Source of the DNA: Streptomyces griseofuscus
Lineage (GTDB): Bacteria > Actinomycetota > Actinomycetes > Streptomycetales > Streptomycetaceae
DNA: 64,000 nucleotides
NCBI RefSeq assembly: GCF_014673495.1
Contig: NZ_CP051006.1
Span: forward strand, 5,580,001 to 5,644,000
Reading direction: 5' to 3'
Shown: positions 42,173 through 48,173 of the stretch, piece by piece
Position numbering within the stretch: position 1 is the first letter of the stretch
Layout of the letters: every line of letters starts with the position of its first letter
Made by a program: the position numbers and the translations under genes
The notes under the pieces: model-generated
Told to the model about the DNA's origin: nothing
The model's database searches: none
Seen by the model: the letters and a program-made list of their open reading frames with translations, nothing else

Positions 42173-42619
42173 CTACGCCCCCTCCGGCCCCTGCGCCCAC
42201 TCCGCCTGCGCGCCGTAGGCATGCTGGTCGCCCTGCTGCACGGCGAACACGGTCCCGGAGCCGTGCGCCGTGTTCGTCTGCCGCAGCACCCGCCCCCGGG
42301 CCCCGCCCCCGGGCGCGTCCTCGACGGCCGCGGCGAGCCGTTCCAGCGCGGCACGGACGGCCGGGTCGCGCCGGAGCAGCGCGGTCAGCTCCAGGGTCCA
42401 GTAGGAGAAGAGCGCCCGCCGGGCCGCGTCGGGGTCCGGGGCCTGCCGGACGAGCGTCGCGTTGCCGTCGAGCTGGCTCTCCAGGGCGGCCCTTCGGCGG
42501 CGGTCCGGGCGGAAGAGGGCGACGACGGCGCCGCGGGTCTCCTGCCACAGGTCGGTGGCCATCGCGGTGACCACGGCGGCGGCCCCGGCCTCGGCGAGCA
42601 CGGTCAGTTCGTCGTTCAT
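42173..42619 (-). CDS. Small helical protein with C-terminal Gly/Val/His motif
   Basis: 148 residues. Residues 1-100 are mainly helical (AEAGAAAVVTAMATDLWQETR, RRRRAALESQL, LTALLRRDP), a type seen at the start of many Streptomyces hypothetical proteins. Residues 116-133, NTAHGSGTVFAVQQGDQH, align without gaps to the tails of the cyclase-like neighbour and of the 73-residue protein at 46880. It begins ten bases after the cyclase-like gene and starts with the same MNDEL, so both are one transcription unit. No enzyme motif. Possibly an adaptor of the island. Confidence 0.7.
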   Translation of the reverse strand: MNDELTVLAEAGAAAVVTAMATDLWQETRGAVVALFRPDRRRRAALESQLDGNATLVRQAPDPDAARRALFSYWTLELTALLRRDPAVRAALERLAAAVEDAPGGGARGRVLRQTNTAHGSGTVFAVQQGDQHAYGAQAEWAQGPEGA

Positions 42620-42629
42620 ACGGCCTTCC

Positions 42630-43385
42630 TCAGTGCTTTCTCTCGATCCGGATGTGCTGGGTGCCGTGCTGGGTGGCGTAGACGACGCCGTGACCGGAGG
42701 CCTTGTTGACCATCTTCGAACCGGCCGTCTTCGAACCGGCCGTCTCCGAACCGGCGGGCTCCTCCTGGGCGTCGGCCGGTTCGGGCGCGGCCTCCGCCGG
42801 CGGCTGCCGGCCCGGCAACTGGAGCCAGGCGTCGGCCGTGTGCTCCTTCACCGTGAAGCCGACCTTGCGGAAGTCCTCGGGGAACAGGCCGAGATGACCG
42901 TGCCGTACCGTCTCGTCGTAGAAGTGCCCGGACAGCAGCAGCGACGCGGGCACCGTCTTTGGCGCCCCGGCCAGCGCGGCCCGTGCGGGCGGCGCGTCGA
43001 GCAGCCTGGCCAGGACCTCCAGCGGACTCCCGGCGACCGTCCCGTCCGGGGAGACATGGACATCGCCCGCGTGCAGCGCGATCCGCACCCGGATCCGGGT
43101 CAGCGGCCCGGCCCCCCGGTTGTACGTGCGCAGCCGCAGGGCGAGTTCGGGCACCAGCGGATGGACGAGCGCCGCCTTGCGGGTGCCCGCCGGTGCCGTC
43201 ACCCGCAGCCCGTCGCCCAGATCGTGGCGCAGACACGCGGACCAGTCGACACCGCTCGCCTCGAACGCCTCCTTGAGCATCTCCGTGAGCCGCGCCCGGA
43301 TCTCCAGGAGCGCCCGGTCCCCGCGCCCGGCGGACCGCTCGATGTCCACGGCCAGCACGGCCCGGTACTCCAACTCGTCGTTCAT
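42630..43385 (-). CDS. Class III nucleotidyl cyclase-like protein with C-terminal motif
   Basis: 251 residues. The domain at 7-135 looks like a class III cyclase: first metal Asp14 (AVDIERS), HDLGDGL with Asp58, RVRIALHAGDV and GSPLEVLARLLD. The asparagine of the canonical NxxxR pair is replaced by Glu123 while Arg127 remains, so catalysis is possible but not assured. After a Pro/Glu-rich linker with a TAGSK repeat comes NKASGHGVVYATQHGTQH at 227-244, the motif shared with two neighbours. It is divergent from a Crp-family gene 104 bases away. No membrane segment. Confidence 0.7.
   Translation of the reverse strand: MNDELEYRAVLAVDIERSAGRGDRALLEIRARLTEMLKEAFEASGVDWSACLRHDLGDGLRVTAPAGTRKAALVHPLVPELALRLRTYNRGAGPLTRIRVRIALHAGDVHVSPDGTVAGSPLEVLARLLDAPPARAALAGAPKTVPASLLLSGHFYDETVRHGHLGLFPEDFRKVGFTVKEHTADAWLQLPGRQPPAEAAPEPADAQEEPAGSETAGSKTAGSKMVNKASGHGVVYATQHGTQHIRIERKH
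42714..42758. repeat. 15-bp tandem repeat in the cyclase-like gene
   Basis: Two exact copies of CTTCGAACCGGCCGT and a third with three changes follow each other, encoding ETAGS, KTAGS on the minus strand just before the C-terminal motif. Confidence 0.85.
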
Positions 43386-43489: not shown

Positions 43490-44221
43490 ATGGTGGACGG
43501 CACACGGTCCCTCGCGCGTTCCGGACGGCGGCCGCGCGAGGAGTGGGACTGGCCGGCGCCCAGCCTGCTCGGCGGCCTCGGCGGTGACGCGCGCGCCCGC
43601 TTACTGGGCCTCGGGACACGGGTGCGCTACGACGCGGACCGGATCCTGATCCGGGAGGCCGACCGCACCGACTTCGTGCTGATCCTGCTGGACGGCGTGG
43701 TGAAGGCCACCGGCCGCACCCAGGACGGCCGGGACGCCCTGCTCGCCGTGCGGATGGGCGGCGATCTGGTGGGCGAACTCGCCGCCGTGGACGGCGATCC
43801 GCGCTCGGCCACCGTCACCACCTGCGGTCCGCTCGTGGCCCGGATGGCGACCCGCGCGGCCTTCCTGGACTGCCTGCGCCGGGACGCGCGGATCGCGGAC
43901 GCCGTGAACCGCGCCATCGTGGCCAAACTGCGCCTGGCCAACGCCCATCGCATCAACTTCACCGGCTGCGACGTCGGCACCCGCCTCGCCCGGGTGCTGC
44001 ACCATCTCGCGATGACCTACGGGGAGCGCACGGGCGCCGGCGCGGTGATCCACTGGCCGATCACCCAGCCCGAACTGGCCACCCTGGCGGGCGCGGCCGA
44101 GCCCAGCGTGCACAAGGCGCTGCGCGCGCTGCGCCGTTCGGGCGCCGTCGCCACCGGCTACCGCAGCGTCCGCATCGAAAACCTCGCCCTGCTGCACCGC
44201 ATCGCCTACCCGGAACCCTGA
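43490..44221 (+). CDS. Crp/Fnr-family transcriptional regulator
   Basis: 243 residues. A cyclic-nucleotide-binding beta barrel spans about 30-140, including GGDLVGELAAVDGDPRSATVTT, which keeps the Gly-Glu and Arg-Ser of the phosphate-binding cassette. A dimer helix and a winged helix follow (WPITQPELATLAGAAEPSVHKALRALRRSGAV). No Fnr-type cysteine cluster, so the effector is probably a cyclic nucleotide. The neighbouring divergent cyclase-like gene and the following ATPase gene suggest it reads the local nucleotide signal. Probably leaderless. Confidence 0.85.
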   Translation: MVDGTRSLARSGRRPREEWDWPAPSLLGGLGGDARARLLGLGTRVRYDADRILIREADRTDFVLILLDGVVKATGRTQDGRDALLAVRMGGDLVGELAAVDGDPRSATVTTCGPLVARMATRAAFLDCLRRDARIADAVNRAIVAKLRLANAHRINFTGCDVGTRLARVLHHLAMTYGERTGAGAVIHWPITQPELATLAGAAEPSVHKALRALRRSGAVATGYRSVRIENLALLHRIAYPEP

Positions 44222-44381: not shown

Positions 44382-46856
44382 ATGACGGACAGGGACACGA
44401 GCGGGCCCGCTCCGGCCGACGAGGGACGGCCCGGGGCAGGGCCCGAGGGGCAGCCCGAGCGGCGACCCGGACGAGGGCCCGAAGGAGGGTCCGAGCGGAG
44501 GATCGACATCGCGGGCGACGCGGGCGGCCCGGTCGTCGCCGGTGATCACAACGTCGTCATCGACGCCCAGCACGGCTCCACCGTCACCCTCCTCATGGAG
44601 GGCCGCAGGCCCCGCCCGGTGCGCCGCGACCGGGTGGCCCTGCTGCCCCGGCGGCAGCACGCGCCGCTAGGCCGGGACACCGACCTGGCCCGGCTCGCGA
44701 CCGCCGTCCGCGACGGCGGCCCGGTCCAGCTGTGGGGCGCGCCCGGCGTCGGCAAGAGCACCCTGCTGCGGCACGCGGCCCGCACCCTCACCCCGGAACG
44801 CGACGGCGTGCTCTTCCTCGACGCGGCCCGGCGCGAACCCGAGGACCTCGCCCAGGACATGTTCGAGGCCTGCTACGAGACCCGGGGGTACGCCCCCTCC
44901 AGCCCCGAACTGCGCCGTCTGATGACCGGCGTGCGCGTCACCGTCTACGTCGACAACGCCGACTTCTCCCCGGAGGGCCTGCGCACCCTCATGGACGCGG
45001 CGCCCGACGCCACGTTCGTCGTCGCGGGCCGGGACAGATCCTTGCTCGGCGACGGCACCGCCCTGCGCCTGGACGGCATCGGCCGCGCCCCCGCCCTCGA
45101 CCTGCTCGCACGCGAACTGGGCCGGCCCGTGGGCGCGGGCGCGGAGGGCGCCACGGCGGGCGACCTGTGGGAGACGTCGTCCGGACGCCCCCTGCTGCTG
45201 CTGCGCGCGGCCGCCCTCACCCGGCTGGAACCGGCCGGCACCGGCGTCCTGCCCCGCCCCGCCGAGGTCGGCGATCTGCTGCCCCTGCTGCTCGGCCGGC
45301 TGGACGCCGAACCGCTGCGCGTCCTGCGGCTGTTGACCACCCTCGACGACGCCGATCTCGACGTCGGCCACATCGAGGCCCTCGGCGGCGCCCGGGACAC
45401 CGACGTGCTCTGCGGCCGGCTGGTGGACCTGGGCCTCGCGGAGCAGACCCAGCGCGGCTACCGCGCCGTGGCCGATGTCGTACCGGCGCTGCGCGAACGC
45501 GACCCCGAGCCGTTCTCCGTCGAGGTGCTGTGCGAGCACTTCGCCACCTGGATCGCCCGCCCCGCCACCACCGCCGCGCAGGTCGAACAGCACGCCCGTG
45601 CCCTGGAGGTGGTGGCCGAACTCGCCGAGCGGGACGGCCGCCCGGAGCTGGCGGTACGGATCGTACGGGCCGCGTCCCCGGCACTGGCCCGCTCGCTGCG
45701 GTTCGGTGTGTGGGGCAGGCTGCTGGACCTCGGGCTGCCCGCCGCCCAGCTGGCCGGCGACCGGCGGGCCGTCGCGTACTTCACCCATGAGCAGGGCATC
45801 CGCAGCCTGCTCACCGGGCGCCGGGTGATGGCGGCCGTCCTGCTCACCGAGGCGGCCGTCCTGTGGCGCCAACTGGGCGATGTGCACGGCGCGAACGCGG
45901 CCGCCGGGGCCCACCAGTACGTCCCCTCGCACGCCGCGAACGCCCAGGGCACCCTGCTCCAGCCGGACGGCGGCGCCTCCCACCTCGCCTCCTCGGGACC
46001 CTCCGCAGGGCCCTCCGCCCCCGACCCGTCCACCGCCCACGCGGCGGGCGCACACGGCACGGCGGCCCACGCGCCCGCTACCGCGACGGACCCCGGCACG
46101 ACGGCCCACACGACGGCGGCCCAGCACACGACGGCCACCACACACACCACGGCCACCTCGCACACGGCGGCCACGACACACACGGCCGCCACCCCGCACG
46201 CGGCGAACGCCGGCGCGGCGAAGGCAGGGGCCGCGAAGGCGGGTGCCGCGAAGGCGGGTGCGGCCAAAGCCGGTGCCGCCGCGCACTCCGCCGGTGCCGC
46301 GCACGCCGGAGCCTCGGCGGCGACCGGTGCCGCGGGGACGGGCGCGGCGGGTGCGGGCGCCGCGGGTGCGGGCGCGGCCGGTGCCGGGGCCTCCATGGCG
46401 GGGGCCTCCGTGGTGCTCAAGGTCGTCGCGGTGATCGTCGCCGTCGTCGTGGGCCGGGTCGTCGTCAGCCAGGCGGTGCACTCGTTCGCGGAGAGCCGCT
46501 CCGGCTCGTCCAGTTCGTCCAGTTCCTCGGACACCGGTCTCGCGGGACGCTGGACGGGCAGCGACGGCGCGACGTACGAGTTCGACGCCTCGGGCGGCGG
46601 CTACGTCTCCCGCGGGCGCGACGCCTGCGGCCAGGACGCGAGCACCGAGTTCACCGGCAGCGGCGACACCTACAGCGCCGAGCGGCCCATCTACGACACC
46701 ACCAGCGGCTCCTGCACCGGCCTCCTCGGCGAGGCCACCACCACGATCACCCTCAGCGGCGACTCCGCCAAGGTCACCACCACCATGACCAAGTCCTACC
46801 AGCAGGGCGTGCAGTGCTTCAGCTGCGGAACGCTCTACCTGACCCGCCAGCAGTGA
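44382..46856 (+). CDS. Membrane-anchored P-loop ATPase with N-terminal motif and external domain
   Basis: 824 residues. A polar Pro/Gly/Arg-rich start leads to IDIAGDAGGPVVAGDHNVV (41-59) and AQHGSTVTLLMEG (62-74). The ATPase begins near 95 with Walker A GAPGVGKS at 119-126, Walker B VTVYVDNAD at 186-194 and FVVAGRDR at 212-219, which resembles a STAND or AAA-like sensor region; a helical part continues to about 505. Residues 551-675 are low complexity (His/Thr repeats, then AKAGA repeats), one membrane helix lies at 676-697, and a Ser-rich stretch leads to an external domain of about 105 residues with four cysteines (749, 778, 812, 815). It looks like a transmembrane signalling ATPase. No family name fits the whole. 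Confidence 0.72.
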   Translation: MTDRDTSGPAPADEGRPGAGPEGQPERRPGRGPEGGSERRIDIAGDAGGPVVAGDHNVVIDAQHGSTVTLLMEGRRPRPVRRDRVALLPRRQHAPLGRDTDLARLATAVRDGGPVQLWGAPGVGKSTLLRHAARTLTPERDGVLFLDAARREPEDLAQDMFEACYETRGYAPSSPELRRLMTGVRVTVYVDNADFSPEGLRTLMDAAPDATFVVAGRDRSLLGDGTALRLDGIGRAPALDLLARELGRPVGAGAEGATAGDLWETSSGRPLLLLRAAALTRLEPAGTGVLPRPAEVGDLLPLLLGRLDAEPLRVLRLLTTLDDADLDVGHIEALGGARDTDVLCGRLVDLGLAEQTQRGYRAVADVVPALRERDPEPFSVEVLCEHFATWIARPATTAAQVEQHARALEVVAELAERDGRPELAVRIVRAASPALARSLRFGVWGRLLDLGLPAAQLAGDRRAVAYFTHEQGIRSLLTGRRVMAAVLLTEAAVLWRQLGDVHGANAAAGAHQYVPSHAANAQGTLLQPDGGASHLASSGPSAGPSAPDPSTAHAAGAHGTAAHAPATATDPGTTAHTTAAQHTTATTHTTATSHTAATTHTAATPHAANAGAAKAGAAKAGAAKAGAAKAGAAAHSAGAAHAGASAATGAAGTGAAGAGAAGAGAAGAGASMAGASVVLKVVAVIVAVVVGRVVVSQAVHSFAESRSGSSSSSSSSDTGLAGRWTGSDGATYEFDASGGGYVSRGRDACGQDASTEFTGSGDTYSAERPIYDTTSGSCTGLLGEATTTITLSGDSAKVTTTMTKSYQQGVQCFSCGTLYLTRQQ

Positions 46857-46879: not shown

Positions 46880-47101
46880 ATGTCCCGTGCACCCGGTAAC
46901 AGCATCCGCATCGGCGGCGACGCGTCCGGCCCGGTCGTCGCCGGGAACGACAACCGCGTCGAGGTCCGCCAGGCCGCCCCCGAGGCCGACCGGGAGGCCG
47001 CCGGTCCCGTCCAGAACAACACGGCCGACGGCCACGGCACCGTCTACACCGTGATGAACGGCGATCTGCACGTCCACCACGAGCCCCCGGACGAGACCTG
47101 A
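46880..47101 (+). CDS. 73-residue protein carrying both island motifs
   Basis: Starts 24 bases after the ATPase stop with GGAAAGG upstream. Residues 9-27 (IRIGGDASGPVVAGNDNRV) match the ATPase N-terminus at 41-59. Residues 47-64 (NTADGHGTVYTVMNGDLH) match the C-terminal motif of the cyclase-like and helical proteins position by position. The two motifs are joined by an acidic/alanine linker. No other domain is present. It could be an adaptor that brings the ATPase together with the cyclase-like protein; short repeats of this kind also recall bacterial amyloid-type signalling motifs. The stop is one base from the convergent nuclease gene. Confidence 0.7.
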   Translation: MSRAPGNSIRIGGDASGPVVAGNDNRVEVRQAAPEADREAAGPVQNNTADGHGTVYTVMNGDLHVHHEPPDET

Positions 47102-47102
47102 A

Positions 47103-48173
47103 CTACCGGGGCAGGACCACCACATAGGCGGCGGGCTCGCGGTCGTCCGCCGCCATCAGGGCCGTACGGACCACCGTGGCCTGCTGCTCCATCGCGTCCC
47201 TGAGCTTCCTCGGGGTCAGATGGACGACCGTGATGCCGAGCCGCTCCAGGTGCTCCCGCTTGCGGGCGTGGCGCGACCACTCCGACTCCTCGTCGGCCTC
47301 GCCCTCCGCGGGCCCGTGCGGCGCCCGGGTGTCCAGCTCGACCGCGACCGCCTGGTCCGGCCAGTACGCGTCCAGGGCACCGAGGCGGGGCCCGCCGGGC
47401 AGCCGCAGCTCGACGTTCCACAGCGGGTCCGGCAGTCCGTGCTCGCGCACCATCCGGTACAGCCGGCTCTCCGCGATCGCGCGGCCCTCCGCCACCAGCG
47501 AGCCCACCGCGTCCCTCACCTGCGGCAGCCCGAGCAGCTTCGCGTTCGTGAACTCCCGGACGACGGCGGCCGGTTCGCAGTGCCCATCGCGCACCGCCTC
47601 GGTCAGCAGCCGCCGTACCGCCGCCCCGTCCCGCAGCTCCGCGGCCGCGTCCGCCAGTGCCCGCGGCACCGGTGCCACCGGCAGCCCGCCCACCGTGGCG
47701 GGGGTGGGCAGGTCGGCGGTGCGCAGGACGCGGACGTAGCCGGTGGAGCGCAGCCGGCGCTGCCGGGGCACCAGGACGTCGACGCACTCCAGATCCGCCG
47801 GCGCCGGTGTCTGCGTGAAGCCGTACAGGGCGAGCGCCGCGAGGCCGGTGAGCACCGCGCCCGGGTAGGGCGGCCGGTACGCGTGCCGCCCGGTCGGCTG
47901 GACCGGGACGCCCGGCGCGGGTTCCCGGGCCGCGTACCGCAGGGCGCCGTGCAGCCGCTCCTCGCCCGTCGGCGGTCCGGGGTGCAACAAGTAGACGTGC
48001 GGCAGCAGTTGGGACCAGGGTCCACCCGGGCGGCATCGTGCGGAGAGTTCGGCCGCGGTCACTCCGTGGGCGCGCAGCTGGGCCGTGGTCAGGACCCGCT
48101 GATGGGGCTCGGCGAGCGGGCCGAGGCGACGGAGGGAGCGGGAGGAGAGCGGTGCATTGTGCGTCATGCCCAT
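47103..48173 (-). CDS. AbiEi-antitoxin-like/DUF559 protein
   Basis: 356 residues. The N-terminal part (HQRVLTTAQLRAHGVTAAELSARCRPGGPW, LPHVYLLHPG) is the winged-helix type seen in AbiEi-like antitoxin proteins. The C-terminal part (WNVELRLPGGPRLGALDAYWPDQAVAVELDT, then KREHLERLGITVVHLTPRKL) is a DUF559-like PD-(D/E)xK fold with the Asp and Glu-x-Asp acids. Such fusions are numerous in Streptomyces and are annotated as regulators or nucleases without proof. No AbiEii toxin is adjacent. I use ATG 48173; ATG 48167 is equally possible. Confidence 0.75.
   Translation of the reverse strand: MGMTHNAPLSSRSLRRLGPLAEPHQRVLTTAQLRAHGVTAAELSARCRPGGPWSQLLPHVYLLHPGPPTGEERLHGALRYAAREPAPGVPVQPTGRHAYRPPYPGAVLTGLAALALYGFTQTPAPADLECVDVLVPRQRRLRSTGYVRVLRTADLPTPATVGGLPVAPVPRALADAAAELRDGAAVRRLLTEAVRDGHCEPAAVVREFTNAKLLGLPQVRDAVGSLVAEGRAIAESRLYRMVREHGLPDPLWNVELRLPGGPRLGALDAYWPDQAVAVELDTRAPHGPAEGEADEESEWSRHARKREHLERLGITVVHLTPRKLRDAMEQQATVVRTALMAADDREPAAYVVVLPR

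What the first reader, a model, noticed from the sequence alone, without database searches (positions are those of the whole stretch)
46880..47101. A 73-residue protein built almost only from the two island motifs
The protein contains the ATPase-type motif at 9-27 and the cyclase-type motif at 47-64 and no other domain. The ATPase itself has a weaker version of the second motif right after the first (AQHGSTVTLLMEG, 62-74, aligning A, T, V, M and G). The small protein thus looks like the ATPase N-terminus with a spacer inserted, which suits a bridging adaptor or a decoy inhibitor.
Basis: partly seen in the sequence, partly recalled or inferred. Interest (0 to 1): 0.75.

Follow-up and report, generated by a model that had tools for sequence, protein, structure and literature searches.

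The report
Two-motif adaptor of a bacterial signalosome
A tiny, conserved Streptomyces protein carries two different short "sticky" tags, one matching a receptor-like ATPase and one matching that ATPase's likely effectors, so it probably works as the plug adapter that joins them, a part not usually seen in bacterial amyloid-type immune circuits.

Summary
The 73-residue ORF is a real, conserved gene, directly 3' of the ATPase in a conserved locus (helical P4 <- cyclase | Crp -> ATPase -> small) in Streptomyces, Wenjunlia and Kitasatospora, and without P4 in Saccharomonospora. It is two motifs (m1, m2) on a fast-evolving linker. In 17 of 17 well-covered loci m1 was found only in ATPase and small protein, m2 only in effector tails (cyclase, P4) and small protein. 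Among 17 loci found through the ATPase alone, the small gene is present in 11 of 11 with m2-cyclase and Crp and in 0 of 6 without; in 4 of those 6 a neighbouring TIR or helical protein carries m1 itself. In Lentzea m1 is fused to the cyclase and no small gene is seen. A bridging adaptor predicts this. The closest known kind is the BASS/BELL amyloid NLR signalosome, where one shared motif joins receptor and effector; here a separate protein appears to convert one motif into another, with a class III cyclase and Crp as likely output. Covariation support is mixed. Amyloid formation and binding are inferred, not shown.

The parts
46880..47101 (+). small two-motif protein, 73 aa, 23 nt after the ATPase stop
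46901..46966 (+). motif m1 of the small protein (residues 8-29)
46967..47011 (+). variable linker (residues 30-44), differing in length and sequence between species
47012..47080 (+). motif m2 of the small protein (residues 45-67)
44382..46856 (+). STAND/AAA-like ATPase, 824 aa
   Evidence: AAA_16/AAA_22 in 10 of 10 members, nSTAND_NTPase5 in 8 of 10, at E<=0.01
44499..44561 (+). motif m1 of the ATPase (residues 40-60)
46410..46466 (+). predicted transmembrane helix of the ATPase (residues 677-695); a C-terminal domain with conserved cysteines follows
   Evidence: hydropathy 2.82; similar windows in all 13 rows printed together, window included; alignment of 14 C-termini
42630..43385 (-). class III nucleotide cyclase domain with m2 tail
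   Evidence: AF2 mean pLDDT 86.6; Foldseek to CyaC 1wc1 and Cya2 2w01, E about 1e-8; invariant D14 and G57-D58-G59
42645..42713 (-). motif m2 of the cyclase (residues 225-247)
42173..42619 (-). P4: five-helix protein with m2 tail, BELL-like
42221..42280 (-). motif m2 of P4 (residues 114-133)
43490..44221 (+). Crp-type regulator with cNMP-binding domain
   Evidence: PF00027 E 8.6e-16, HTH_Crp_2 E 3.5e-12; G95, E96, R105 identical in 28 of 28

Best explanation
The small protein is a motif-converting adaptor in a membrane-anchored, amyloid-type signalosome. The ATPase (NTPase domain inside, one membrane helix, C-terminal domain probably outside) oligomerises on a signal and clusters its m1 motifs (inferred). 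m1 of the small protein is templated onto this nucleus and brings its m2 into register (inferred). The m2 array recruits the m2 tails of the cyclase and P4 (inferred). Class III cyclases act as dimers (recalled), so clustering should switch on cNMP synthesis, read by the Crp protein encoded next door; P4, a BELL-like helical protein, would act at the membrane (inferred). Shown here: the conserved gene, the sharing pattern of the motifs, the predicted fold of the cyclase and the gene linkage with Crp. Not shown: translation, binding, fibres, enzyme activity, trigger, outcome.
For: (1) In 17 of 17 loci with enough sequence, m1 hits lie only in ATPase and small, m2 hits only in cyclase, small and (15 of 17) P4. 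(2) ATPase-ascertained test (E<=1e-50; 17 loci besides the window): small in 11 of 11 with m2-cyclase and Crp, 0 of 6 without. (3) In 4 of those 6 a neighbour carries m1 itself: TIR protein L104 (TIR_2 E 5e-14), helical proteins L102, L103 and L137. (4) Lentzea L075: m1 fused to the cyclase N-terminus, no m2, no separate small gene. (5) L134/L136: m1 of ATPase and of small have both changed to an 'IGRD.NG..VVA' form. (6) Partial Mantel tests on 28 loci, distances of Crp, NTPase and cyclase domain removed: small m1 with ATPase m1 r 0.59 (0 of 2000 permutations), small m2 with cyclase m2 r 0.37 (0 of 2000), cross pairs about 0 or negative. (7) Ka<Ks over the motif columns in 14 of 14 chosen pairs. 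(8) In L101 no P4 was found and a hydrophobic, likely membrane protein with an m2 tail (E 1.4e-4) follows the small gene: m2 marks the effector side.
Against: No binding or amyloid data. In the 21-locus main clade the m1 coupling is weak (r 0.21, 132 of 2000) and the wrong pair small m1-cyclase m2 is as strong (0.25, 71 of 2000); without L134/L136 the m1 pair is 0.25 (13 of 2000) and that wrong pair 0.24 (11 of 2000); in a 19-locus less redundant set the m2 pair is 0.27 (35 of 2000). P4 m2 does not track small m2 (-0.32) or cyclase m2 (-0.27) and instead tracks m1 (0.43 and 0.60), so P4 as a partner rests on motif likeness; in L134/L136 the P4 tail is not found by the m2 profile, only weakly by the whole-small profile (E 0.05-0.1). 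P4 was not found in L068 and L070. The ATPase m1 of L130, L133, L134, L135, L136 is not found by the small-only m1 profile at E<=0.3. Of the six no-adaptor loci, L129 and L132 show no m1 neighbour, and the ATPases of L103, L129, L132 are not found by the m1 profile; L132 is a contig of 8.4 kb. Several profiles were trained on loci they score. A conversion of m1 order into m2 order within one chain has no structural model here.
Confidence: 0.67

Rival explanations
1. Decoy or brake: the small protein caps ATPase m1 clusters and effector m2 clusters and keeps the system off until it is titrated or degraded.
For: Short, motif-only, encoded directly after the ATPase in the same orientation, as expected for a co-expressed inhibitor.
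Against: If it only inhibits, no motif found here joins the m1 ATPase to the m2 effectors; it is absent where effectors carry m1 themselves.
Confidence: 0.14
2. Non-amyloid scaffold: m1 and m2 are beta-structured pairing segments that build a defined oligomer (no prion-like polymer), with the same bridging logic.
For: Same genomic evidence as the best explanation; AF2 shows only low-confidence strands in the cyclase m2 (225-229, 235-239; blocks at pLDDT 54-60); no known amyloid-motif family among the Pfam hits of P0001/P0002.
Against: Motif length, terminal position and neighbourhood fit published bacterial amyloid signalling motifs.
Confidence: 0.12
3. The five genes respond to a signal by transcription only: the small protein is a cofactor of the ATPase, and the cyclase-Crp pair works separately.
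For: Two divergent gene groups; P4 m2 does not track small m2.
Against: Small m2 aligns with the cyclase tail and covaries with it also in the main clade (0.37, 0 of 2000).
Confidence: 0.07

Closest known systems
BASS/BELL amyloid NLR signalosomes of filamentous bacteria (Dyrka et al. 2020, not held; seen through PMC7889193 passages and section 9, and passages of PMC8086366, PMC12261475, PMC9815663)
   Same: Short motif at the N-terminus of an NTPase and a motif at the C-terminus of a neighbouring small helical effector; TIR effectors also reported there; filamentous actinobacteria.
   Different: There receptor and effector share one motif. Here they carry different motifs, joined by a third, motif-only protein; effectors include a class III cyclase with Crp.
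RHIM/PP/BASS3 motif family
   Same: m1 has some likeness to the Frankia BASS3 peptide printed in PMC8086366: 15 of 56 m1 rows pass a 5% shuffle test against 0 of 28 m2 rows; the combined m1 profile scores a Methanothrix BASS3-like peptide above 2000 of 2000 shuffles.
   Different: Marginal for Frankia (39 of 2000 shuffles reach the combined-m1 score, 70 with the small-only profile); for Methanothrix the small-only m1 profile (65 of 2000) does no better than the m2 control (67 of 2000); no RHIM among the Pfam hits.
Animal two-module adaptors such as ASC, FADD, MyD88 and RIPK1 (recalled)
   Same: A protein with two different self-assembling modules links sensor and effector.
   Different: Most of those modules are folded death-fold or TIR domains; here both are about 20-residue motifs and no folded domain was found.
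Effector-associated domain (EAD) principle of conflict systems (PMC7159879, PMC8195603; passages read)
   Same: Homotypic modules recruit diverse effectors, cNMP cyclases among them, to an NTPase core.
   Different: EADs are small domains, mostly alpha-helical; the small protein here has no Pfam match. EAD models were not searched by name.

Membership tests
BASS/BELL amyloid NLR signalosome | motif at the NTPase/NLR N-terminus and the same motif at a terminus of an adjacent effector | tested here: not met
   In the five-gene locus the ATPase has m1 and the effectors m2; met in relatives: L104 (C-terminal m1) and, with N-terminal effector motifs, L102, L137, L075, and by eye L103
BASS/BELL amyloid NLR signalosome | match to one of the ten BASS profiles | not testable with these tools
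   profiles and the source paper are not held
BASS/BELL amyloid NLR signalosome | motif forms cross-beta amyloid and seeds its partner | not testable with these tools
   needs peptides
BASS/BELL amyloid NLR signalosome | NLR-type (STAND/NACHT/NB-ARC) NTPase | tested here: inconclusive
   AAA_16 and AAA_22 in 10 of 10 members, nSTAND_NTPase5 in 8 of 10, NACHT in 2 of 10 at E<=0.01; for the window member AAA_22 just passes its cut-off (27.2 against 27) and AAA_16 does not
BELL domain (P4) | small alpha-helical bundle | tested here: met
   five helices, residues 1-100 in blocks at pLDDT 89-97
BELL domain (P4) | hydrophobic transmembrane helix | tested here: inconclusive
   best 19-residue hydropathy 1.33 in the window protein, in the N-terminal helix; best values 0.83-1.80 in orthologues, not always there
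RHIM | match to a Pfam RHIM model | tested here: inconclusive
   no such hit for P0001 or P0002 at E up to 10; so short a motif can be missed, and that the library holds the model is recalled
Class III nucleotide cyclase | fold and two metal-binding aspartates | tested here: met
   Foldseek probability 1.00, E about 1e-8; D14 and D58 invariant in 18 of 18; metal role recalled; no Pfam hit in 18 of 18
Class III nucleotide cyclase | makes a cyclic nucleotide | not testable with these tools
   activity and substrate unknown
Crp/Fnr regulator | cNMP-binding domain plus Crp HTH | tested here: met
   invariant G95, E96, R105

The most novel reading that the evidence does not exclude
A bacterial counterpart of ASC or RIPK1 made of nothing but two unlike prion-type motifs: it converts a receptor's amyloid code (m1) into an effector code (m2), so one membrane NLR-like ATPase drives both a second-messenger cyclase and a membrane effector, and effectors can be swapped behind m2.
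Probability: 0.5. Interest if true: 0.85.

Novelty: new variant of a known kind. Interest (0 to 1): 0.72.

Why it matters
In the papers seen, amyloid signalosomes of bacteria are described as two-part circuits with one shared motif. A separate converter would show that bacteria also build layered, adaptor-based relays, make motif specificity (who talks to whom) testable with two 20-residue peptides, and link amyloid-type signalling to cyclic-nucleotide signalling. It also gives a simple rule for finding missing adaptors: motif-only ORFs next to NTPase genes whose motif differs from that of the neighbouring effectors.

Tried and rejected
Rejected: 'weaker m2 in the ATPase'. Rejected: chance ORF. 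The ORF follows the ATPase in 18 of 18 loci printed, most with a purine-rich site before the start; overall Ka/Ks is below 1 in 13 of 14 pairs that I chose out of 378 possible; the pair window-L056 is 1.42, because of the linker (Ka 0.42, Ks 0.14 outside the motifs).

Led nowhere: viral contigs, no relative; family libraries for the small protein; fold of P4, best Z 4.7 to TetR-type proteins, not meaningful for a helical bundle; sequence relatives of the ATPase in solved structures, three short P-loop matches. Related ATPases L105-L107 (E 2e-39 to 5e-45) were fetched too; no m1 was found in their ATPases and they are not counted. ATPase matches weaker than 1e-50 were otherwise not examined, and only 4 to 6 candidates a genome were scored, so loci can be missed. 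Literature: no paper on a motif-only protein with two unlike bacterial amyloid motifs stood out in the listings; the main source (Dyrka 2020) is not held, so it may be mentioned there.

Rows dropped before counts: one search scanned 21 loci; L057, L060, L072 (little sequence beside the gene) and L075 (fusion) are outside the 17. L065 is in the 17, but its P4, cyclase and Crp are broken or cut. The covariation set (28 loci) left out L055 (near copy of the window), L057, L060, L065, L072, L075, and L068 (no ATPase hit by tblastn; found by profile). L018 and L020-L022 are the same loci as L056, L059, L068 and L071. G049 has a second ATPase match of equal score that was not fetched.

Full report
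What is there. Window 46880-47101 (+) encodes a 73-residue protein, 23 nt after the stop of an 824-residue ATPase gene in the same orientation. The window lies in a 9.1 Mb genome (G000:C1:5580001-5644000) whose nearest named relatives among the loci fetched are Streptomyces malaysiense and S. murinus. Gene order: P4 (42173-42619, -), cyclase (42630-43385, -), Crp-type regulator (43490-44221, +), ATPase (44382-46856, +), small (46880-47101, +).

Conservation. The small protein was searched in 199 genomes of the genus: 8 match at E<=0.001, of which 6 (own included) are two-motif proteins; the other two (G159, G063) are P4-type proteins with m2. Searching 198 genomes with the cyclase gave matches at E<=1e-10 in 100, since the cyclase family is broad, but at E<1e-50 in only 7, and 7 of 7 of these loci have the small gene: six, G146 by a wider set of queries. 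A scan of the species genome collection with the six-row alignment gave 21 loci: Streptomyces, Wenjunlia, Kitasatospora, Saccharomonospora, a Mycobacteriaceae MAG and Lentzea. In the 17 with enough sequence the small gene follows the ATPase, and cyclase and Crp are present (cut in L065); P4 in 15, broken in L065, not found in L068 and L070. The alignment shows two conserved blocks, m1 and m2, and a linker that varies in length and sequence. Over the motif columns Ka<Ks in 14 of 14 chosen pairs; outside them Ka exceeds Ks in 3 of 14.

Who carries what. m1 (GGDASGPVVAGNDNRVEV in the window) is found in the ATPase N-terminus and the small protein; m2 (QNNTADGHGTVYTVMNGDLHVHH) in the small protein and, in related form, in the cyclase and P4 tails. 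In 17 of 17 loci no other m1 (E<=0.01) or m2 (E<=0.001) appears in up to 20 kb. The profiles were trained on many of these sequences, so finding those is by construction; the absence elsewhere is not. In loci not used for training, the small-only m2 profile finds P4 tails at E about 4e-9 to 0.2 and cyclase tails at 2e-4 to 0.26, and misses some (the P4 tails of L134 and L136 among them); the small-only m1 profile finds the ATPase motif in L101, L125-L128, L131 and L076 but not in L130, L133, L134, L135 or L136.

Test independent of the small protein. An ATPase alignment (m1 plus NTPase) was searched in 394 genomes of the class and 293 of the order. Besides the window, 17 genomes match at E<=1e-50. 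Eleven (L101, L125-L128, L130, L131, L133-L136) have a cyclase with m2, a Crp and a small two-motif gene; six (L102, L103, L104, L129, L132, L137) show none of these in the stretch held; L132 is only 8.4 kb, and L129 has a P4-like domain without m2 about 8 kb away. The 11 fall into three groups of relatives and are not independent, so no p-value is given.

Where the adaptor is absent. L104: a TIR protein (TIR_2 E 5e-14) ends in m1 beside the ATPase. L102, L103, L137: a protein of about 140-155 residues with N-terminal m1 lies next to the ATPase; those of L102 and L103 have a hydrophobic stretch in the C-terminal half (hydropathy 1.7 and 2.1), and L137 is alike by eye. The ATPase m1 of L103 is seen by eye only. 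Lentzea (L075): m1 is fused to the N-terminus of the cyclase, which lacks m2, directly before the ATPase. In L129 and L132 neither the ATPase nor a neighbour passes the m1 profile. L101 also holds a separate Crp-cyclase-NTPase module in which cyclase tail and NTPase N-terminus share one other motif directly, by eye. So receptor and effector can share a motif directly; in the five-gene system they do not, and the small protein is the one that has both.

Covariation. With distances of Crp, NTPase and cyclase domain removed, small m1 tracks ATPase m1 (r 0.59, 0 of 2000 permutations) and small m2 tracks cyclase m2 (0.37, 0 of 2000), while cross pairs do not. This depends partly on the deep clades: in the 21-locus main clade the m1 pair falls to 0.21 (132 of 2000) and the cross pair small m1-cyclase m2 is 0.25 (71 of 2000); the m2 pair holds (0.37, 0 of 2000). 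Without L134/L136 the m1 pair is 0.25 (13 of 2000), the m2 pair 0.22 (24 of 2000) and that cross pair 0.24 (11 of 2000). P4 m2 does not track small m2 (-0.32) but tracks m1 (0.43, 0.60). I take it as weak support.

The partners. The cyclase model (mean pLDDT 86.6) matches class III cyclases CyaC and Cya2 (Foldseek E about 1e-8); D14 and D58 are invariant in 18 of 18, Lentzea included; Pfam finds nothing. The Crp protein has PF00027 and HTH_Crp_2 with G95, E96 and R105 invariant in 28 of 28; that these bind cNMP is recalled. The ATPase has a P-loop NTPase of AAA/STAND type, a strong hydrophobic helix 138-182 residues before its end in the eight rows measured, and a C-terminal domain with conserved cysteines in most rows that differs in L074, L131 and L134, as a variable sensor would. 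P4 is a five-helix domain with a disordered m2 tail.

Mechanism. Bridging of m1 ATPase clusters to m2 effectors, cyclase activation by proximity, and Crp reading the product are the simplest account of the sharing pattern. The templating step by amyloid is inferred from published bacterial motifs (PMC7889193 section 9; passages of PMC8086366 and PMC12261475; the 2020 source paper was not available). m1 has a marginal likeness to BASS3 peptides, with one m2 control as good. Whether the system serves phage defence, cell death or development is not tested.

Verdict.

Noticed in passing
L101:13585-17711: Separate Crp-cyclase-NTPase module in which cyclase tail and NTPase N-terminus share one motif (GPVH.G.GDQ) directly, without adaptor, by eye.
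   Followed up: partly
L101:12254-12601: 115-aa hydrophobic, likely membrane protein with an m2 tail right after the small gene, where no P4 was found: possible effector swap.
   Followed up: partly
L104:3496-4182: TIR-domain protein ending in m1, convergent with an m1 ATPase.
   Followed up: partly
L024:9741-11996: P4-type protein with m2 tail next to a larger protein with an internal m2-like stretch and a hydrophobic segment: possibly a direct m2-m2 pair.
   Followed up: no
L065:6600-7800: P4, cyclase and Crp are broken or cut while ATPase and small are present.
   Followed up: no
window 47103-48173 (-): Protein without Pfam match, convergent with the small gene and kept beside it in L055-L057 and L066.
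   Followed up: no
L134:4912-8258: Three extra genes (the first vWA-like by eye) between ATPase and P4; another large gene with a P-loop-like pattern lies beyond Crp.
   Followed up: no
window 45950-46400: Long Ala/Thr/His/Gly-rich low-complexity stretch in the ATPase before its membrane helix.
   Followed up: no
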